From Lepas anatifera (lineage: Eukaryota; Arthropoda; Thecostraca; Lepadidae), in NCBI GenBank assembly GCA_034440635.1, contig JAOTON010001819.1:1147001-1211000 (forward strand): DNA of 64,000 bases, written 5' to 3'. The position numbers and the translations under genes are program-made. Position 1 is the first letter of the stretch. Each line of letters opens with the position of its first letter. Below, one piece after another: positions 1 to 44,984 of the stretch. The notes below the pieces were generated by a model, which worked only from the letters and a program-made list of their open reading frames with translations, was not told where the DNA came from and did no database searches.

Positions 1-179
1 CTCCAATAGAGGGAAATCCGACGGATTGAGAACCATTGCAGGGAGCTGGAGACAAGCCGGTTCCAGTTTGGTACGCCGGTCAGATTAGAAAAATATTTGG
101 GGCTAATATTCCCTTTCCCTCAACTACCCGGACGGAGGGATAACCAGAAGAAATTGTCCTTAGAATATTTACTTCATCC

Positions 180-407
180 CATAGGAGGATCCAGGAGGGC
201 AAAGGGGCACGTGCCCCCCTCCCCTCTCTGATCAACTCTCGGTGAACCCTAAAATGTCCCCTCCCCCAGGATGCGAAAATCGGCGCACACTGATAGGATT
301 TAGCGTCCATCTGATAGGTTTTGCCGGTCAAAGGTGGCGCCCCCCTGGTCCGGATGGTTCCCTCCCCGGAAGTTACCCCCCGATCGGCAATCATGGATCC
401 GACTATG
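180..407. mobile_element. hAT MITE with 8 bp TSD CTTCATCC
   Basis: The ends are imperfect inverted repeats: CATAGGAGGATCCAGG on the left and the complement of CATAGTCGGATCCATG on the right. CTTCATCC is present at 172-179 and again at 408-415, an exact 8 bp target duplication as hAT transposases make. The body contains a CACGTG palindrome inside a G/C run and no coding capacity. Copies of the family are at 29981-30226 (inside the other TTAA element, same target) and, more diverged, at 58327-58596. Confidence 0.85.
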
Positions 408-476
408 CTTCATCCATTAGTACGCATGAACAAACAAGAAGAAAATCAGAAAAATTGTTTTTACCGTAAAAACTTC

Positions 477-545
477 CACGACCTAGATTCGAACCCGTAT
501 TACCCGTTTGAGAGTCGGGAATGGAGGCCACTATACCATCCCCGC
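477..545 (-). tRNA. tRNA-Glu(CTC)-like sequence, pseudogene or SINE head
   Basis: Read on the minus strand, there is an A box (GGTATAGTGG), an anticodon-arm-like CCCG/CGGG stem around a loop holding CTC, and a B box (GGGTTCGAATC). The T stem and acceptor stem pair poorly, so I do not regard it as a working tRNA gene. It sits inside the TTAA element end and recurs at 29844-29912 in the other copy. Confidence 0.5.
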
Positions 546-904
546 TGTACGACACCTACCCGATTTTAAAACTTTCCTGATTAGTTTTCTCAAGGCGAAT
601 GTTTTGGACAAACTAATCTAATATTTCTATTTTTAGGGTTAATAAAAATAAATTGAATACGAATACAGCATTCAAACATTTTCTACCCCCAAAAATTATT
701 TATAGAACTTAAAACTTTGATTGATAGAATAGAGGTGAAGAGCAGGTTACAGCCTATTATTGATATGGTTAGCAAATTTGAATAATTGTTGAGTGGCCTC
801 CAAAAATTTAGCTGAAGATAAAGAAATGATTGATAGTACCAGAATCAGGATTTTTCAAATATTAAGAAACCACAATAAAAATTTTTGCGACAATGTCCCT
901 TTAA

Positions 905-28206: not shown

Positions 28207-29481
28207 CTAATTAGGTGGGATGGGATTGTAGATTATGTCAAACTTGATCTCCCGCAGGTATGGTAGAACCTGACAGATGTGTATGACTGTGTTGTCGCCT
28301 AAAATCTGTTCCAGTGGAAACGGCGGGAAAAACCGGCGCTGAATTCGTTTAAGCTGTTCACAGGAGTCAGTGACAGATAAAACGTGTTGAACAGTGAGGC
28401 GGCTGCCACAGTGAGAACACATGTTGGGGTTCGTGCTGTTGAGATAGTGAAAGTGTGTGGTATAGCAGTGGCCAATGCGGAGTCGAGTGAGGCAGACCTC
28501 CTCCCTCCTATTACGTCTGCAACTCGACTCTCATTGGCCAATGCGTGGTCTTAAGCGCTTCGTCCGCTAATTCGTTGCCAGTCACACCCACATGACTTGG
28601 AACCCATAGAACCTGGACGTCAAAGCCACGAGAAGCCATTGCAGTCAATAGCTTTAGTATAGCAGCTACAAGCCACGATGTCTGTAAATGACTAGATTGG
28701 AGCGCTGCCAGCGAGCTGGCTGAGTCAGTGATAAGATGTCGTGTCCCAGAAAGGTGTCTGATGTGTCGTAAAACTTGCAAGATGGCAAACAGTTCGGTTG
28801 TAAAGACCGACACAACATTCGGCAGCCCGAAACAGCGGCGGGTTCCTTCGCTAACAAAGGCACATCCGGCTCCAGCTGCTACCTTGGAGCCGTCAGTGTA
28901 GAACTTTGTGCGGTCGGTGTATGAATGGATTCTTTCAGCAGCGAGTTGCGCAAAGTCTGGTGGAAGTGTATGCGACTTTCCATTCTGCATCAACCTTGTG
29001 TCACATTTCGCGGATACTTCACGCCATGGCTCTAGGGTCCCTGGGCGTTGTTTTGCGATCATGGTGATATTAATGTTAGATTCTCCAAGCCAGTGTGAAA
29101 TCCGGCTGCACAGAGCCGAAGATGAGCTTTGCATCCCCGCAGAGAATAAGTCTATTAGCGAATGGTCAAAGATCCACTTGTACGTTGGGTGGGTTGGGTA
29201 TTGGCGGATCTTAGTGGCATACATAAGTGCTAGTCGCTTCCTCCTAAGGTCAAGCGGGGCCTCGTCAGCGTCAGTCAGAAGGCTTGCTCTACTAAAGGTG
29301 CGGAAAGCACCAGTGGCCACTCTTATACAGGCGTGGTGGACTGCGTCCAGGGGCTGCTTAGTGCTCGTTAGAGAACCGTCATAAACCACGGAAGCATAAT
29401 CCAGGACCGATCTTACCAGCGCTCGATACAGGCGTAAAAGTGTGATTCTGTCCGCTCCGTAGGATGTGCGTGATATCATCT
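28207..29481 (-). pseudogene. I-like LINE: RT thumb, RNase H, C-terminal CCHC
   Basis: From the TTAA at 29482 the frame reads KMISRTSYGADRITLLRLYRALVRSVLDYASVVY, the post-RT region. The RNase H domain follows with FYTDGSK (near 28893), TTELFAILQVLRHI (near 28800), ITDSASSLAALQSS (near 28730) and VLWVPSHVGVTGNELADEALK (28615-28555), so the D-E-D-D set is complete. A frame break near 28520 leads to the C-terminal cluster CSHCGSRLTVQHVLSVTDSC (near 28420-28365), ending near 28207. The apparent start at 29593 is leader from the TTAA element end, the same in-frame leader that precedes the LINE at 905. Confidence 0.85.
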
Positions 29482-29843
29482 TTAAAGGGACATTGTCGCA
29501 AAAATTTTTATTGTGGTTTCTTAACATTTGAAAAATCCTGATTCTGGTACTATCAATCATGTCTTTATCTTCAGTTAAATTTTTGGAGACCACTCAACAA
29601 TTATTCAAATTTGCTAACAATATCAATAATAGGCTGTAACCTGCTCTTCACCTCTATTCTATCAATCGAAGTTTTAAGTTCTATAAATGATTTTTTGGGC
29701 GTAGAAAATGTTTTCATGCTGTATTCGTATTCAATTTATTTTTATTAACCCTCAAAAATACAAATATTAGATTAGTTTGTCCAAAACATTCGGCTTGAGA
29801 AAACTAATCAGGGAAGTTTTAAAATCGGGCAGGTGTCGTACAG

Positions 29844-29912
29844 CGGGGATGGTATAGTGGCCTCCATTCCCGACTCTCACACGGGTAATACGGGTTCGAA
29901 TCTAGGTCGTGG
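29844..29912 (+). tRNA. tRNA-Glu(CTC)-like sequence in TTAA element copy B
   Basis: Plus-strand counterpart of 477-545: A box GGTATAGTGG, loop with CTC between CCCG and CGGG, B box GGGTTCGAATC. The T and acceptor stems do not pair well. Conserved between both copies of the element, so it predates their separation. Pseudogene or SINE remnant rather than a working gene. Confidence 0.5.
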
Positions 29913-29980
29913 AAGTTTTTACTGTAAAAACAATTTTTCTGATTTTCTTCTTGTTTGATCATGCGTACTAATGGATGAAG

Positions 29981-30226
29981 CATAGTCGGATCCATGATTG
30001 CCGATCAGGGGGGTAACTTCCGGGGAGGGCACCATCCGGACCAGGGGGGGCGCCACCTTTGACCGGCAAAACCTATCAGATGGACGCTAAATCCTATCCG
30101 TGTGCGCCGATTTTCGCATCCTGGGTGAGGGGATGGGACGCGACATTTTAGGGTTCGTTCACCGAGAGTTGATCAGAGAGGGGAGGGGGGGCACGTGCCC
30201 CCTTTGCCCTCCTGGATCCTCCTATG
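29981..30226. mobile_element. hAT MITE, same insertion as 180-407
   Basis: Flanked by GGATGAAG at 29973-29980 and 30227-30234, the complement of the CTTCATCC duplication around 180-407. The shared target proves one insertion event copied along with the TTAA element. It is 18 bases longer than the left copy, with length differences in the G-rich part. Confidence 0.85.
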
Positions 30227-30617
30227 GGATGAAGTAAATATTCTAAGGACAATTTCTTCTGGTTATCCCTCCGTCCGGGTAGTTGAGGGAAAGGGAATAT
30301 TAGCCCCAAATATTTTTCTAATCTGACCGGCGTACCAAACTGGAACCGGCTTGTCTCCAGCTCCCTGCAATGGTTCTCAATCCGTCGGATTTCCCTCTAT
30401 TGGAGACTAGTTCCCCTGTTTTCTGACCAGCGGGACACGTTGTTCGCCGTTCGAAAATGTCTTTTGTGTCCTTTGCTGAAGGCCATTCTTGAAGGCTGAC
30501 CGGTTTTCGTGCAAACCAAGAACCAGACACCGGCCCAATAAAAAGCAGGGGTGGCTCTTCGAGATTATATGTGTTAATCTCGAGATTAATGTGTCTCGAG
30601 ATTAATTGATCGTTTAC

Positions 30618-31637
30618 CCCTCGCCCCACCGGGGGCCATCGATGGCCCCCTAAGGTTTTTCCGGGATAGCAGAAAGATAATGAGGCGCAGCACCGTGGTT
30701 GAGGGCTCTACCTCTCACTGCATCATTTTCCCACCATCCCTGAATTTTTTTTTACCCCGGGTCACCCAAGTTCAGGTCACTAGACGAGTTCAACCAAGGT
30801 CACCTCACTTCAGCTTTAGAGCTCTGTAAGAGCTACATTTCGGAGTCGATCGATTTGAAACTTCCTACACTTTATGACCCCTCCAGGGTCTACAAGGTGT
30901 ATATCCGGGATTTTTCGATTTCGTGCCCTGAGGTCAGGTCACGAGGTGACCTCTCCCATTGAAAAAACATGGGAAAAACTGTCTTATGATCTAAAAGTCA
31001 CAAAAACGATTGAAAATGCTCAGCTTGATCGGAAAAGCGGTTTTGGCCACCCTTTCACGGATTCCAGGTGCCATATTTGCCCTTTGATATCCCCAAGGTC
31101 ATCCAAGGTCACCAGGGGTCAAAAACAGTATTTTGACAATAACTTTTACCTGTATATACTAGAGCGCTGAAACAAACACCATCGTGTTTGTCTCGTCATT
31201 GGCTTTCATTTGATATACGGCAAGGTCACTTTCTGACCTTTCGTGACCTCAGGTCATACTAGGTCACGAGGTGACCTCTGGAGGTCAAACTACTGGCGGG
31301 AGGTCTTTACGTTTCCATAGCAGAAAAGTACTGGCAATTTCCTATCAAATGTACTTTCCCACACCTCAATAGCTCTAAGAACATAAGAGTTATGCCCAGT
31401 TTGGTTAAGCATTGCATATTTGAGTGAAAATAGCCGATCTTGACCTAATTTGACCTCTGGAGGTCAAACCATTGACCTGAACACTAAAACATGTGAAGTA
31501 ATTTCTTACTGAATTCACGCGAGCTTTCTAGTGCACTTTGCAGATTTGCGCTAACGCCCATATTTTCGGAGTTAGAGGGGGCCATCGATGGCCCCCGGTG
31601 GGGCGAAGGTGGCGCCAGACCCCCGGTGGGGCGCGGG
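30618..31637. mobile_element. AGGTCA-rich TTAA element (family 1), copy 2
   Basis: It starts CCCTCGCCCCACCGGGGG after TTTA (a decayed TTAA) and ends GGTGGGGCGCGGG before TTAA (31638-31641). It is collinear with copy 1 (23632-24651), including GCAGCACCG, TTCCGGGATAGCAG and CCATCGATGG near both ends. I count 18 AGGTCA/TGACCT words between 30770 and 31485, where about 0.4 is expected by chance. No coding capacity. Nested in the 8 kb TTAA element. Confidence 0.88.
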
Positions 31638-31641
31638 TTAA

Positions 31642-32210
31642 CAAGCGCATTGACGGGAGGCGGGTACCCGCCCCCTCGTCTGGTTTTTTGACAGAACATA
31701 AAAACGGCGGCGCTACGCGCCGCCGCACTTGTATCCATACGCGTATATTAACAGTAAAAACGCAGTACATGGTAAAACATACACTCCTAACACTAGGCAA
31801 AGAAAACTAGGCAGGGGCGCCGCCACGGAATTTAAGCCATCACACATTTATTAGGTAGGTACTTAACACATTCGGGTTAAAAAAAACTCGGGTTAAAAAA
31901 CTTGGCATACCTTCTCTCATCATTTTTACAACTTTTGTCAAAATTTTAAGGTTAGGTCATCTCAGGTCAGGTCACCAGTACAGGTCAAGTGACCTGACCT
32001 CAAAGTTTAAGACAACATAAGTCGGAACAAAGTGAACTCATCCGATTGAAGTGACCTGACAAAATGGTTAAAATATTTCGATGGAGAAGCGTATGGGCTA
32101 CCCAAAGCCGTTTACCATTTTTCACTACCTACCGTGGTTCTGGAGATTTTAGGGGGTACCCGCGCCCCCTGTCAAAGCGAAGGTGGCTCAGAGCCCCGTC
32201 AATGCGCGTG
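31642..32210. mobile_element. TTAA element (family 2), 569 bp, sharing a TTAA with its neighbour
   Basis: Ends CAAGCGCATTGACGGG and CCCGTCAATGCGCGTG form a terminal inverted repeat, with TTAA at 31638-31641 and 32211-32214. The left TTAA is also the right TTAA of the family 1 copy, so one element inserted into the other's flanking target. A GGCGGCGC..GCGCCGCCG hairpin lies at 31705-31727. The inner part has CAGGTCAGGTCACC and GTGACCTGACC words. Sister copy at 52888-53711. Confidence 0.88.
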
Positions 32211-32279
32211 TTAATCTGGTAAAACAACGAGATAAAACGTTAATCCGTACGAGATAAAACGTGTTCGAGATTAAATGTG

Positions 32280-32640
32280 GCGGTCTCCCAGGGCGGACCA
32301 CCCTGAAAGACCGCCTGGGCCTTTCACGGCACGAGAGTGTGGAGGTGGAGCGCCTGCGCATTGGCCACTCCCTTCTCCTGTGCAGCTACCGAAAGAGGAT
32401 CGGCCTGAACCCGGAGGCCACGTTACAGGAATGCGACGATGGAGAGGACGAGATCCTCCACCACCTTCTGACCCGGTGCCCTGCGTGCGCTGACCTGCGC
32501 TGGGACATATTTGGACGGGACGACCCGCCCATCCGGGAAGCGCTGGCGGACCCACGACGGCTGGCGATGTTCCTGCGGCGGTTGGAGCGCCTGCAGGGGC
32601 GCCCCCTCCCATATGGCCGGAACACTCAATCAATCAATCA
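32280..32640 (+). mobile_element. 5'-truncated LINE 3' end with 11 bp TSD
   Basis: GATTAAATGTG lies at 32269-32279 and again at 32641-32651, and the insert ends in a CAATCAATCAATCA tail, the hallmarks of target-primed reverse transcription. The 120 codons encode the C-terminal region of an RNase H-type LINE: RLRIGHSLLLCSYR, then a CCHC-like set (CDDG, ILHHLLTRCPAC). It is the cleanest LINE insertion in the window and younger than the 8 kb TTAA element it sits in. It differs in sequence from the C-terminus at 49800. Confidence 0.88.
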
Positions 32641-32651
32641 GATTAAATGTG

Positions 32652-34629
32652 TCCGTCGACATCTAAATCTTTGATATAATTGTAATTCTTTGGTCTCCGG
32701 AGGACATAAAAACACGTAGTCTAGAGAACCGGAGAATAGCTGAATGTGATACGGAAGAATAACTCTTGATATGCGTCAGAACTGGGGAACCAGAGAGCAG
32801 CCACCACGATCCTTGGATGAACTAACAAAAGTGTGGAACGCACCACGAACCCAAACCTGACCACTTTTTGTTTCAGGGGGAACGTTTGTTGTGTGTTGCA
32901 GGTTGGAGATGGACTGGCCACCTCACTCCTCTGTCCGTGGTGGTAGCTCTTTCTAATTTTTTTCGTATATAGATATACAAGATTTAAGAATACATTGTTT
33001 TTTACTTCAAGTTGAGTTAGTTTCTGATCAGGGCACATCAAGAAAATATACCTCAAAATTATAGCCTGGAACAGTTCGTATTAAATAAAAAGGATTCTAT
33101 AATTAATCTTAACATTGGTAGTCACAGAGTCTAAACCTAAGAAGACGCATCGCAGCTTTAAGACAAGCAAGCTGCTAGCCTCATGAGTGACATTTGTTTA
33201 TGAAAATGATAAGCGTTTATTTTTAATACTTCGGAGTTCGGAAACGGTCCTTTCTCATAATAGAACAAACAATTCCAGAAGCACTTCACATAACATCATA
33301 TCATTATATAAAATAGTATATTAACCGTTATTTTTATTAGATTGTTTATTAGATGATCTACGTTGATAAGATATTTCATGACCAGCCTCCTCGAATCCTA
33401 GTTCCAAAATGGGGCTAATACACTGATAAATATTCAGGTACATCCCTTCACCAAAATTCTCATAATATAATAGGTGAACACATACATTTTTAGTCAGAGT
33501 GCTATGATAACCTCGAATCGAGTTCCAATATTTGAATATTCCAGTACTGAACTGCATTATTCCAGCATTCGATTTCCAAATCAGATCTAAATTTCAAGCC
33601 TTGGTCACACTATGACCAAAAGTTTTCGCTTATTGTATTATGAGGATTCTGACGAGGGGCTGTGCCCGAATATGTGATCACAGTGTGATCACAGGCTCCA
33701 TTTTGCGTCAAGAATTCGAGAGGCAAAGCCATGAAACATCTTACCAATTTATAATCATGCTCCTCGGCTACGCAATGCAAAATTCATCTACTTTTAAAAA
33801 CCAACAGATATCAGTTGATCAATGAGGCTTATATTCAATCTCACAAGAACATGAGAAAATATAACCTACCAGGAAATTACAAGCGAGTGATAACCCTCGG
33901 CAGGTGAGAAACGCGTGCAACAATCAGGTCTGCGAGTCCCCAACGAGCAGTCTTCCGAGTGCAACGTGGACTAGAGGATATAACTCAGTACGTCAGTGAC
34001 GGATCCAGGCCAATGCTTTTTGTGGGGGGAGGGGAGGACAGGGTCCAAAATCGTGAATACACATTTTTTTAAAGGTCGGTGAAAATCGCAGAGTTTGGGA
34101 GGAAAGTAAATTTTCCCTGAACCCACCAGTGGGTATGCAGCTCCTAGCTTCCAGTCCTTGGAAGTGCACTCTAAGAAGGCTGGGAGCGAACCAAATACTG
34201 AGTGTACATCAAAAGCATAACAGATTTTGCATCTGTCCACAATAAGTGCTACACGGTTTGATAAAATGTTCACCGCAATAGTCTGAGCACAGAGGTGTCA
34301 CTTATTATTTCCGCCGACTTTCGCACGTACGACCACCAACAAAATCTGACCACTTGGTTTTTTACTATAAAGACCCTTTGCATTACTAGTTTTCTTACCT
34401 TTAGGCTAAAAAATACTTTTAATGGCATGTTTTACTGAGGTCCTCAGAGGATTTGCCTTAATATACCGCGATAAACACCACTTACGCACATACATGGCTA
34501 GGCTCTTCTTAAATTAGAAGATATTTTCACAGCAGGAACAAATGGGACCAAATAAAGGGTACAAATAAAATATCACAAGCCCACAATGAAAGCAAACAAG
34601 ATATCACTGAATCTTGTTTTAAACATATG
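32652..34629. other. Unassigned interior of the 8 kb TTAA element (left part)
   Basis: AT-rich and free of long frames. Small items: a perfect palindromic TGATCACAGTGTGATCA (33674-33690), and CAGTGACGGATCCAGGCC at 34000, which resembles the left end of the hAT MITE family seen at 56136 but has no matching right end. No coding sequence is supported. Confidence 0.4.

Positions 34630-34695
<66 letters not shown>
34630..34695. repeat. (TA)n microsatellite
   Basis: About 33 uninterrupted TA units. It accounts for the YIYIYI frame at this position. Confidence 0.95.
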
Positions 34696-34699
<4 letters not shown>

Positions 34700-36642
34700 G
34701 AACAAAGACATCCCCAAAGACGATCTATAGTCTAGATCATGGGTTTGTGGAGGGGTCAGGTGGAACCATGCAAATTCATGTTTTTTATAAATTACAATAC
34801 ATTATTTCAACACTGGCCCACAATAGGAAACAAATATTCCAAATTTCAGGTCTATGGGAGAATCGGTCTGATTGGGTTCATCCCATTCAAACTAACAAAC
34901 AAAATGATCATACACAAGCTGGTCCATTGGGACGATAGCTTGATGATACACAGCAGCTACAAAAGACAGGTTTTCTAGTAAACAAATTTTCTCTTTGAAG
35001 CGACCCACCTAATCTGTCATATATTCTTCCAGGAAAACACAAAAATTGCATCACCCAAGACTGCCCCCCTGTCATTCCTACATGACTATCCATACTCTTT
35101 GTTCACAATTATATTGTTGTATTGGGTACACTCCTAGTGTTTCAAATCATAATACATCTTATCCTGGTTTTCCTTCAGTTCATTTTTAATATCAACTATA
35201 AGAAGCATGCAGATGGGCATTTTCAGAGGGCAGATGGATGAATTCATCTGCAGATGAGCATGAATGCAGATGGGCATTTTCCGAGGGCAGATGGATGAAT
35301 TCATGCTACAGTCACTTTCATGTCTGGAAACAAACAGTAGCACTTGAAATATGAGTAGATGGATCTGATAAGTAGTTAGGAGTACACTGACTACTATGTA
35401 CTGTATGGTACCAAAATAAATGGAAAATCTGTTTCAATCTGTAAAATTAATCAAAAACATTTTCATACTTAAAAGAAGGTAAGCTAAGCAGCAAATGCAC
35501 TAGCATGCACACATTGTGCAGAGCCAGTATTTGTAGCAGGTAGAAATTTGTAATTCAAATTACAAGCTTGATATAGACTTTTACTAGAGTGCACAAATAT
35601 TGTAAATATAAAGTTAGACCAAAAAGAGAGGGAATATGGGCAATTCAAAAATAATATGCTTAAATAATCATTGGAGAATTGCCATCACCAAATAATTTTC
35701 ACCTATTTTAGTACACAAGTTCACCTGTGCAACAATAAAATGAGGACTTTTTGGCATTGACACTGCTCATAAGCCTTGTTCCGTCTGCCAGCACAGCCTT
35801 GTCCGTGAGCCCTCGAGCCTCTCCTCTAGAAAAGAAATACCACAACTGTCTCTAGTATATGCTATGGATAATCAGACAAAAATGAACCAGAATACTTATC
35901 TACCAATCACAAAAAAGTATGCTACCACTGTTGTGCTGTTACTGTTTTTCCAGCAGCACCACAGCAGGTAGCCAGCCTGTAAATCTAAGATTGGTTCTAA
36001 GATTGGTTCTAAGGGAGAGGCTATAGCCATGTGACATAGACTCAATCCAGTGTGCAAAGTATGGCATTTTCAACGAGATCTCGTCAGGGTGAGTGCCCTA
36101 GGAGACAAGAGTGAGTGGTGTGAAGTTCATCAACCTGGTGTGAATTTCCCAGACTGGTGCAAGGAAGGTGACACTGAAAACCAAACAAATAATGGCTGAA
36201 TGGTTATAAAGACACAGGAGGGGACCTTATAACAAGTATTTAACTAACTAATACAAGAGGTAGCATTGCATTGTGTGGGTACGAAAGGGTGCATTTTTCT
36301 CTATGGTATATAGCAGTTTGGTGTGAATTTTTGGTGTCTGGCAGTGCAATGATTTTAGGTGGCTGGTGTGACTCGTCTAGCCTGCTGCCATACTTTGCAG
36401 ACTGGGACTCAATGCTGCTCGCTGATTGGTGTTGACAGACGAAACGAGACCACAGCTATAACAGTGGGCCAAAATGAATAGTTATCAATTAAGCATACAA
36501 TTTGCTTTTTGGCAACTTCATGAACCTAATTAATGCAGAACAGAAACATTAAATGCATTGCCCATACTTGAAAGGATTAGTGTTTGACTAACTCACTACA
36601 CTCACTAAACAAAACCTCAATAAGCATTGGTGGCCAGCAAAG
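34696..36642. other. Unassigned interior of the 8 kb TTAA element (right part)
   Basis: AT-rich sequence with intron- or UTR-like texture. A 57 bp unit (ATGCAGATGGGCATTTTC and onward to GATGGATGAATTCAT) is duplicated in tandem at 35207-35305, and GATTGGTTCTAA is duplicated near 35995. No coding signal. Confidence 0.4.
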
Positions 36643-36751
36643 ATGGATGGCAAAAATTCAAATTGTTTCATTAACTTTTCACGCATAGATTTTTTACCTC
36701 TAAGAAAATCTCAATTGACCACATCAAAGGCTCAAAATATTCTACGTGCAG

Positions 36752-36970
36752 ATTACCGACGATATGTTGATCCACGAGACCGGAGAGGCGACAATCTCCT
36801 CGTCCGAAAAACCACCCAAAGCTTTCTTCATGCCTCAAAGGAGGCTCTTCTGGATCGCGCTACCCGTATCTTTTTATTGTATCATTTTAGCTGCAATGCA
36901 ATCATGCAATAACGAACAATTATTAATTATAATCTTTAGGGTATTCGGGCCTGACCGCAGCACTAATTAG
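36752..36970 (+). pseudogene. Unrecognised coding-like stretch with one membrane segment, candidate captured exon
   Basis: Base composition rises and the frame opens directly after a splice-acceptor-like ATTCTACGTGCAG at 36739-36751. The predicted peptide starts ITDDMLIHETGEATISSSEK, continues PPKAFFMPQRR, then a hydrophobic stretch of ~19 residues (LFWIALPVSFYCIILAAMQ), then SCNNEQ, ending at 36970. That is the profile of a short cytoplasmic N-terminus and a first transmembrane helix. I do not recognise the family. It may be an exon captured by the TTAA element, a remnant of the host gene, or chance. The likely coding part ends near 36910, where composition drops. Confidence 0.35.
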
Positions 36971-37457
36971 TGTTATAGAATTTGTATTCATATCTTCGCG
37001 TTTGCCGAGGTTTTTGAAATGGTAAATATCGATAGTTCGTTGGTAGCCATGATGACATCACATTGATGTAAGATAAGCCCACGTGACCAGATCCTATAAG
37101 GACTGGGCTTCTGATTGGTTGATGGTATTTCTTTAAAGTCCTATATTTCTCTTTCAAAAGCATTTTGGAAATATCTTTTTATAGAATAATTTTTGATGTT
37201 ATAGGTTTTAACTACTGAACTGATTTAAAAGAAATTTTTGACATTTTTTCATATATAAATTGATAGCTATAGCCGGGTCTACGTCACTTTATCGTTACCA
37301 TAAGGACTCGGTAAAGTCGTCTATAAATGTTGACTTTGAGGCCGATTTTCAGGCATTTTGAGCCTGAATTTGCAAAAATGAGAATATGACTTCTGAAACA
37401 ACTTTTTGTAACCTTTTGATCTAGCCAATAAAAATGTTTGCGACAATGTCCCTTTAA

Positions 37458-38425
37458 TACATTTGCGCGTTTCATGCATTTGTTTCTTGTCAATATAATG
37501 TGCTGTGTGTAGGTAAGACGCTTGTCGATGGTTAAACCAAGAAATATGGCATGGTCAGAGACTGGGATTCGCCTCCCGTACAGCATCAGCATCCGCTCTG
37601 GGCAGTAGCGGGTCCGGCGGCAGAAATGCGCACAAACCGTTTTCTCAGTCGAAAAGTTAAAACCAATCACGAGGCTCCACTCGGTCAGGCCGTCAATACA
37701 TAGCTGTAGCTGTCGCTGTGCAGAGAGTGTGGTCGAGGTGCTTATCCAGACGGCTAGGTCGTCGACATAAAACGATCTCAACCGTGGAAGGGATTGCACT
37801 GCAGATGTCTTTGATTAAAACCCCGAAGAGGGTCACACCCAGGACACTTCCCTGTGGTACCCCGCTCAGCTGCTCAAACCTCCTTGACACGGCATTTCCT
37901 ACCTTTACCCTAAAATACCGATTCCTGAGAAAAATGGCCAGAAAATGGCCCATGTGCCCCCCTCACTCCCGCAGCATGGAGCTTCCGGAGAATCGCATGT
38001 CTCCAGGCCGTATCATAGGCTTTCTCGATATCATAGAAGACCGCGATGGTGTGCTGTTTCCGCGTAAAAGAGCGGCGAACGGCTGTGTCAAGTGAAACTA
38101 AATGAGCAGTGGTGGACCGGCCGGCGCGGAAACCACACTGTGCGTTGGATAGAAAGCCGGTGCTTTCTAGAAACCATGTGAGGCGACGATTAATCATTCT
38201 TTCGAACAACTTGCATGCACTAGAAGTCAGGGCGATGGGGCGGTAGTGGAGAGGGTCACTACCGTCTTTGTCCTGTTTTAAAACAGGGACTACCATGGCC
38301 TCCTGCCAAGTATCCGGGAATTCGTGCGTGGTCCAAATATGGTTATAGAATGATAAAAACACCCGAAGTGATGGCTCGTCCAAGTTCCTAATCATGCTGT
38401 AGTGAATGTTGTCGGGTCCGGCTTT
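37458..38425 (-). pseudogene. I-like LINE: reverse transcriptase
   Basis: Minus-strand RT block of the 28190-43015 LINE. In order: GPDNIHYSMIRN (near 38425), FPDTWQEAMVVPVLKQDKD, YRPIALTSSACKLFERMINRRL (near 38250), CGFRAGRSTTAHL, FYDIEKAYDTAWRH as motif A (38045-38000), LSGVPQGSVLGVTLFGVLI (37870-37820) and FYVDDLAVWI as the catalytic box (37770-37745). LGLTIDKRLTYTQHI and CMKRANVLK follow, up to the TTAA at 37454. Frameshifts near 37950 and 37790 split it into three frames. Motifs A and YVDD are intact. Confidence 0.85.
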
Positions 38426-44001: not shown

Positions 44002-44984
44002 CCCTCGCCCCGGTGGAAGGTGTTAAAACACCCCCTCGGGTGTTTTCCGGCGGCACGAAAAACGGCGGCGCGAAGCGCCGCCGTACTTAGCAGCTTTATC
44101 CTTGATGGATTACGCAGCTTTTCCCAATATTTTAAGGTTGGGTCATCTCAGGTCAGGTCACCAGTGCAGGTGACCTCACCTCCAAATATGTTTAAGCGGC
44201 ATAAGTAAGAAATGGGTAAATTTATCGAATTAAAACTTATTCCATATAATGGGCCTAACGAGTGCTACAATATATATTCCGGGATTTTTCATATTGATGA
44301 CCTAAGGTCAACTACGGACCATGACCTCGCTATTGTAAATATTTGGGAAAACAGAAATTGGGCTGTATTTGTGTACTCAACAGCTGAGAAAACCTCAATA
44401 TTCCCCAAATCGTAGTATCCTGGGACCTTTCCAGGCTCATGTTGCAATTTTTGACCTGTGACCTCTGAGAGGTCATCTGGGGCTATTCAAGCAGTTTTCA
44501 AACTTATGTCAATAACTTTGCATGAAATGATCCAGCTTTTATTTTGATATCATTGCATTTAGATTGCTATTGCGAGTCGATTGATTGCATATTGACTATG
44601 CTAGTTTAAAAAGTGACCCTGAGCTGAGGTCAGATCATTTTTAGGTTTTGACCTAGTATGGGTCGTTCGATTTTCCGATTTGATTCATCATTCGATTTTC
44701 CGTGACGAGAGGAAGCGAATGGTGTCTAAAAATTCTTCTCACTCAGCTCTGTCAGACGCTAGATCCCAAAAACTCTACTCAAAATCCCACTTTCTTTGAC
44801 CTGTCATGACCTCAAAATTGACCTGAGCCAAAAAGTGACAGATGTAATTTCTTCATGAATTTGTATGAACTATCCAACAGTGTTCGCTTTTTCACTATCA
44901 CACATAGAGGCCGAGTTCGAGGTGGTATTCAAACACCCCCTCCCACCAGGGCAAAGATGGCTCGGAGGCCCACTGGGGCGTGGG
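44002..44984. mobile_element. AGGTCA-rich TTAA element (family 3), 983 bp
   Basis: It starts CCCTCGCCCCGGTGG after TTAA (43998-44001) and ends CCCACTGGGGCGTGGG before TTAA (44985-44988). The ends are inverted repeats with two mismatches. Near the left end is a CACCCCCTCGGGTG hairpin and GGCGGCGC..GCGCCGCCG (44064-44084), as in family 2. AGGTCA/TGACCT words are frequent (AGGTCAGGTCACC near 44150, TGACCTGTGACCTCTGAGAGGTCAT near 44453). No coding capacity. A right-hand fragment of the family is at 57640-57949. Confidence 0.88.

What the first reader, a model, noticed from the sequence alone, without database searches (positions are those of the whole stretch)
29482..37457. A complete ~8 kb TTAA-inserted element proven by the LINE frame it splits
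The ends AGGGACATTGTCGCAAA are inverted repeats next to TTAA on both sides. The two LINE halves (CMKRANVLK ending at 37458 and KMISRTSYGADR from 29485, minus strand) join in frame across a single TTAA. An 8 kb TTAA element with no visible transposase is large for a non-autonomous piggyBac-like unit. It carries tRNA-like, MITE and exon-like cargo.
Basis: partly seen in the sequence, partly recalled or inferred. Interest (0 to 1): 0.82.

Follow-up and report, generated by a model that had tools for sequence, protein, structure and literature searches.

The report
Large Kolobok-type transposon without transposase
An 8-kilobase piece of DNA sits inside the remnant of another mobile element and is one of several hundred copies of a jumping element in this animal genome; it shows no enzyme of its own and most likely moves with a borrowed Kolobok-type transposase, so it is a new family of a known kind, unusual mainly because it is so long.

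Summary
Window 29486-37453 is a complete element with 28-bp inverted ends (AGGGACATTGTCGCAAAAATTTTTATTG) and TTAA on both sides. Leaving it out with one TTAA rejoins the host LINE frame. The 15-bp end occurs 619 + 580 times in the 1.04-Gb genome, against 0 for the reversed pattern. All 23 complete copies read have TTAA at both ends; 2 of 19 joined target sites have uninterrupted paralogues in sequence already held.

The piggyBac reading is not supported: TTAA plus AGGRR (5'-RR...YY-3') ends are the published Kolobok signature. No transposase is visible: six frames give no Pfam match and 42 ORFs show no purifying selection. No partner transposase was found, so Kolobok rests on ends and target only.

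Less ordinary: of 37 adjacent facing end pairs among the first 100 places none is under 6.5 kb. Copies carry foreign inserts that spread with the element: 12 of 19 share three, 3 share one, 4 none. The family (roughly 400-600 copies) seems to have grown by swallowing other transposons rather than shrinking to MITEs. The window's copy is young (0.8% from the young majority). New member of a known kind; moderate interest.

The parts
29486..37453 (.). complete non-autonomous Kolobok-type element (7968 bp)
   Evidence: TIRs and TTAA; 19 copies aligned along its length
29482..29485 (.). TTAA target copy, left
37454..37457 (.). TTAA target copy, right
29486..29513 (+). left terminal inverted repeat, 28 bp, starts AGGGA
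   Evidence: arm I3 without TTAA
37426..37453 (-). right terminal inverted repeat, 28 bp
30616..31637 (.). nested unit 1 (1.02 kb, GC-rich inverted ends, TTAA-type target with the left copy decayed, CCC.../...GGG ends: piggyBac-like, inferred); present here in 12 of 19 copies
   Evidence: (I1); uninserted site read in 6 of the 7 copies without it
31732..31899 (.). nested unit 2 (168 bp; 5-bp direct repeat ACTTG); present in 12 of 19 copies
   Evidence: ACTTG single in L010 and L022, other copies without it differ around the site
36047..36405 (.). nested unit 3 (351 bp plus 8-bp target duplication GACTCAAT), a MITE; present in 15 of 19 copies
   Evidence: the 8 bp are single in the 4 copies without it (one substitution in L015)
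32258..32671 (+). 138-codon ORF, LINE-like C-terminal fragment (by eye); neutral
   Evidence: found in all 23 copies aligned
28511..29481 (-). downstream half of the split host LINE (RNase H)
37458..37814 (-). upstream half of the split host LINE frame
1..900 (.). end part of a second copy of the same family (6568 bp, runs on left of the window; TIR at 886-900)
   Evidence: L028

Best explanation
A non-autonomous DNA transposon of the Kolobok type. Shown: 28-bp inverted ends beginning AGGGA, TTAA target duplicated, uninterrupted paralogous target sites, several hundred copies, no detected coding sequence under selection, recent spread, and stepwise gain of nested inserts that were then carried along. 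Inferred: a Kolobok-type DDE transposase made elsewhere in the genome binds the ends, cuts the element out and joins it into a TTAA. The element grew because other transposons landed in mobile copies without harming the ends, and those enlarged copies went on transposing. The window's copy belongs to the youngest group; it jumped into a LINE copy.
For: Genome count 619+580 vs 0 control. 23 of 23 complete copies read have TTAA at both ends (the pair at C80 shares one TTAA). 61 of 61 end 15-mers beside TTAA. LINE frame rejoins. Uninterrupted paralogous targets for 2 of 19 joined sites: L019 vs L030, 90.5% over 200 columns; L027 vs window 44348-44494, 83.7% over 153 columns; the four target bases there read GTAA and TCAA, one change each from TTAA. 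End signature as in PMC6004289 and PMC9587614. No Pfam hit in six frames; 42 ORFs of 60 aa or more, smallest p for excess synonymous change 0.077. Window copy 0.8% from the young majority sequence over 2450 sites. Inserts with their own target repeats, absent from deep-branching copies.
Against: No partner transposase was found. Kolobok membership therefore rests on ends and target alone. Other TTAA superfamilies (Sola3, recalled) were not tested.
Confidence: 0.82

Rival explanations
1. It is a non-autonomous piggyBac-like element.
For: TTAA target duplication, which piggyBac shares.
Against: Ends begin AG and finish CT; PMC9587614 (section 3) names 5'-RR/YY-3' as what separates Kolobok from piggyBac. 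The nested unit 1, with CCC/GGG ends at a TTAA, looks more like piggyBac (CCC rule recalled).
Confidence: 0.08
2. It is autonomous after all: a transposase split into many small exons lies in the 8 kb and was missed.
For: Full-length Kolobok copies in Xenopus are 6.8-13.9 kb with a CDS of about 2.3 kb (PMC6004289, Table 5), so length alone fits.
Against: No Pfam hit at E<=1 in six frames with stops masked; none of 42 ORFs shows an excess of synonymous change, and each of the 42 is broken by stops or frameshifts in part of the copies. Short exons would escape both tests.
Confidence: 0.05
3. The length is itself required: shorter derivatives cannot move, or the large unit has a function.
For: 0 of 37 adjacent facing end pairs are under 6.5 kb; 35 of 37 are 6.5-38 kb.
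Against: The three inserts vary between copies, so the interior tolerates additions; only the first 100 of 1199 places were listed, and MITEs with diverged ends would be missed.
Confidence: 0.15

Closest known systems
Kolobok superfamily, Xenopus XKol/T2 (PMC6004289)
   Same: TTAA duplication; ends AG..., AGGRR in T2 (Xenopus full-length pairs include AGGGGAACTATCATGA); full-length copies 6.8-13.9 kb; non-autonomous relatives thought to be moved in trans
   Different: Xenopus Kolobok transposases have DDE, THAP and H2CH motifs (CDS about 2.3 kb in the full-length copies); the T2 non-autonomous members are MITEs, here about 8 kb. Not all ten Xenopus pairs of Table 5 start AGGRR (some AGCGA, AGTGA, AGAGC)
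KolobokP (PMC9587614)
   Same: a Kolobok lineage; Kolobok is defined there by TTAA and RR/YY ends
   Different: KolobokP has long terminal direct repeats, a His-Me nuclease and multimers that share a direct repeat; here no such repeat is seen, and touching copies share only a TTAA. Its oyster non-autonomous families are 1.7-3.3 kb
piggyBac superfamily
   Same: TTAA duplication
   Different: RR/YY ends here; no piggyBac transposase (PF13843) hit in the element

Membership tests
Kolobok | TTAA 4-bp target duplication | tested here: met
   23 of 23 complete copies read
Kolobok | 5'-RR ... YY-3' ends | tested here: met
   AG...CT (definition read in PMC9587614)
Kolobok | AGGRR terminal motif (T2 branch) | tested here: met
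   AGGGA in the copies read, which were found by that pattern (definition in PMC6004289)
Kolobok | DDE transposase with C/DxxH signature, in the element or in a partner with the same ends | tested here: inconclusive
   none seen in the element; partner not found, search tool mostly unavailable
Kolobok | THAP DNA-binding domain (usual in Xenopus Kolobok) | tested here: inconclusive
   150 THAP matches scored of 1373 candidates in the genome; 6 family representatives lack this end in the roughly 2.9 kb upstream read
piggyBac | TTAA target duplication | tested here: met
piggyBac | ends that are not RR/YY (CCC.../...GGG, recalled) | tested here: not met
   AG...CT
piggyBac | piggyBac-type transposase (PF13843) | tested here: inconclusive
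   no hit in the element; genome search PF13843 not answered
KolobokP | long terminal direct repeats of about 450 or 660 bp | tested here: not met
   The repeat finder lists no direct repeat joining the two ends (longest direct family 41 nt, internal)

The most novel reading that the evidence does not exclude
A several-hundred-copy, transposase-less Kolobok family that stays above about 6.5 kb, does not collapse to MITEs, and enlarges by keeping foreign transposons landed in it: a passenger vehicle that evolves in the opposite direction to the usual internal-deletion derivative.
Probability: 0.3. Interest if true: 0.5.

Novelty: new member of a known kind. Interest (0 to 1): 0.36.

Why it matters
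Non-autonomous DNA transposons are usually thought of as shrinking. Here a family of roughly 400-600 copies (about 4-5 Mb; arithmetic: 1199 ends, 70 of the first 100 falling into pairs under 40 kb, median 9.1 kb) appears to stay long and to take other transposons along, with target repeats that order the events. It would be a usable system for asking what sets the size limit of Kolobok cargo and whether length matters to the transposase. If a partner enzyme is found it would also be a large-cargo TTAA system.

Tried and rejected
Partner transposase. (a) Of the first 8 end loci, 7 continue into the family; L001 (C14) keeps only 40 bp next to a LINE, and the fetch further in showed another 150 bp of the right end and then foreign sequence; unresolved. 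(b) 40 further end places were sampled 0.7-1.25 kb inside: 34 matched the family (L059 and L072 only by a generic or short stretch, L067 and L068 over about 100 bp), 6 did not (L038, L044, L049, L055, L061, L065). L055 gave a THAP-like reading (by eye), but the 10-kb fetch (L074) showed a family copy with a 5.66-kb insert flanked by an 11-bp repeat CTGCGGCCAGG, so it is nested and not the partner. L061 is a family copy with foreign inserts. L038 and L065 look like LINE ORFs and L049 like repeats (by eye). C155 (L075, 70 bp of family end) and C184 (L077, 151 bp) have family ends with foreign interior and are unresolved. (c) PF05485 (THAP) in the genome: 1373 candidates, 150 scored and matched. 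One representative each of six multi-copy THAP families was read for roughly 2.9 kb upstream; no AGGGACATTGTCGCA in either direction with up to 3 substitutions, no TTAAAGGRR on the + strand. (d) PF13843, a LINE-flank DNA search and atypical-end patterns did not complete.

Coding: six frames against Pfam gave nothing at E<=1; 42 ORFs showed no selection; the LINE-like fragment's unique changes are N 75, S 39, stop 2, near the neutral expectation. RNA: only an (AT)n artefact. Organism: not identified; among the 107 relatives of the split LINE the best with a name are from a barnacle and orb spiders.
Full report
WHAT WAS CHECKED. Window 29486-37453 begins AGGGACATTGTCGCAAAAATTTTTATTG and ends with its inverse (97% over 32 nt including TTAA). 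TTAA stands at 29482-29485 and 37454-37457. Leaving out the element and one TTAA in a script gives a minus-strand LINE frame of 443 codons open to a final stop, through ...CMKRANVLK-MISRTSYGADR..., with RNase H in the downstream half and RT in a frame further upstream. So the split-LINE argument is right.

GENOME EVIDENCE. The window lies in a 1.044-Gb, 2126-contig genome (G000:C1705). The 15-bp end occurs 619 times forward and 580 reverse; the reversed control pattern 0 and 0. In the 100 places listed, 37 neighbouring pairs face each other (+ then -): 35 are 6.5-38 kb apart (median 9.1 kb), two are much further, none is closer than 6.5 kb. Seventy of the 100 ends are thus in likely pairs; the rest have no exact partner nearby. 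I read 23 complete copies: the window's, L009-L027, L028, C15 and C79. Every one has TTAA on both sides, and 61 of 61 end 15-mers in the sequence then held touch TTAA, some places counted twice through overlapping loci. Beyond TTAA the target shows at most a weak preference (T at -1 in 23 of 52 distinct flanks). In C80 two copies touch and share one TTAA (read); the 4-base gap in C150 suggests the same (not read). L020 touches the end of another TTAA/AGGGAATGTG element.

EMPTY SITES. Of 19 joined flanks compared with all sequence then held, two have an uninterrupted paralogue across the junction: L019 with L030 (90.5% over 200 columns) and L027 with window 44348-44494 (83.7% over 153 columns). 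In these paralogues the four target bases read GTAA and TCAA, one change each from TTAA, so they show the site without the element but are not themselves TTAA. L014 and the C80 tandem pair sit at the same TTAA of the same repeat (85.7% over 112 columns, only about 14 of them beyond the junction). The direct search for uninterrupted copies of the window's own LINE did not complete.

ANATOMY AND HISTORY. The 19 copies L009-L027 align along the window's copy. Twelve share all three nested units: unit 1 (30616-31637), unit 2 (31732-31899) and unit 3 (36047-36405). Seven lack units 1 and 2, and four of those (L011, L015, L021, L022) also lack unit 3; L021 has a unit-1-like insert elsewhere and reversed. 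Unit 3 is flanked by an 8-bp repeat GACTCAAT that is single in the four copies without it (one substitution in L015); unit 2 by ACTTG, single in L010 and L022; unit 1 sits at a TTAA (left copy decayed) and has CCC/GGG ends, its uninserted site being read in 6 of 7 copies. The uninserted state is therefore ancestral and the family gained weight step by step, unit 3 first. Divergence from the young majority sequence (16 copies) is 0.6-1.4% for 14 of the 23 copies (window 0.8%), 1.6-3.7% for L027, L017, L014 and L010, 5.7% for L009 and 7.3-8.3% for L022, L021, L015 and L011; the tree is ladder-like, with low support inside the young group. Against a simple ladder: L027 is close to the young group yet lacks units 1 and 2, and its left 1.1 kb is only 89.5% like the window while the rest is 94.6-97.7%, which reads as a mosaic. 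L074, a copy of the deep lineage, is 98.9% identical to L011 over 3.6 kb, so the deep lineage was also copied recently. Single copies carry further private inserts, among them a LINE (C79), some at TTAA.

CODING CAPACITY. Six frames with stops masked give no Pfam match at E<=1. None of the 42 ORFs of at least 60 aa shows an excess of synonymous change over expectation (smallest p 0.077). The best conserved long ORF is a LINE-like C-terminal piece (32258-32671) that evolves neutrally (unique changes N 75, S 39, stop 2). The family is non-autonomous as far as these tests reach; a gene of many short exons would escape them.

WHICH SUPERFAMILY. From passages and named sections read: PMC6004289 (passages, section 15) gives the T2 hallmark as TTAA target and terminal AGGRR, shared with Kolobok's TTAA and RR, and lists ten full-length Xenopus copies of 6.8-13.9 kb, all with AG ends, one with AGGGGAACTATCATGA; PMC9587614 (abstract, sections 3 and 10, passages) states that Kolobok ends are 5'-RR and YY-3', unlike piggyBac, and that oyster non-autonomous KolobokP families are 1.7-3.3 kb. 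The transposase, the remaining defining feature, was not found. 150 THAP matches were scored of 1373 candidates in the genome. Six family representatives do not show this end in the roughly 2.9 kb read upstream. One THAP-like reading inside a family copy (L055/L074) is a nested insert with an 11-bp repeat.

HOW IT PROBABLY WORKS. Shown: inverted ends, TTAA duplication, uninterrupted paralogous sites, recent copies, no detected coding. Inferred: a Kolobok-type DDE transposase from another locus acts on the 28-bp ends and perhaps subterminal sequence, by cut and paste. Inserts that spare the ends are tolerated and amplified with the element.

NOVELTY AND LIMITS. A new family of a known kind, as far as I can tell; Repbase and Dfam were not available, so it may already be catalogued. 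Literature searches listed no paper whose title or shown abstract describes it; I read only the two papers above, in part. The unusual point is size: about 8 kb, roughly 400-600 copies, no short pair among 37. That rests on the first 100 of 1199 places, and MITEs with diverged ends would be missed.

Noticed in passing
window 1-904 and L028 3333-9900: A second copy of the same family (6568 bp) ends at window 886-900 with its TTAA, directly before a LINE endonuclease frame; it lacks about 1.6 kb of interior that the window copy has (near window 35136-36701).
   Followed up: partly
window 30616-31637; L018 3740-4937; L023 3719-4598 (orientation of the window copy): GC-rich inserts at TTAA with CCC/GGG-type ends, two of them (L018, L023) at the same TTAA of the host element: probably a different, piggyBac-like TTAA family.
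   Followed up: partly
L020 54-67 and 8022-8035: Ends of another TTAA element (AGGGAATGTG) on both sides of this insertion: a possible second Kolobok-like family.
   Followed up: no
L074 604-6261: 5.66-kb nested insert with an 11-bp target repeat and a THAP-like exon repeated three times in tandem; type unknown.
   Followed up: partly
L081 1890-2697, L083 283-658: Relatives of unit 3 (8-bp duplication MITE) lie in the sequence upstream of THAP exons of two multi-copy families, so unit 3 may belong to a THAP-encoding superfamily with 8-bp duplications such as P (recalled).
   Followed up: no
L027: Mosaic copy: deep-lineage left 1.1 kb joined to young-lineage remainder, suggesting recombination or gene conversion between copies.
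   Followed up: no
window 34496: The window copy, like L016 and L020, lacks about 210 bp that most other copies have here.
   Followed up: no
L075/L076 (C155), L077/L078 (C184), L033/L001 (C14): Ends of this family (70-190 bp) with foreign interior; nested, truncated, or different elements sharing the ends.
   Followed up: partly
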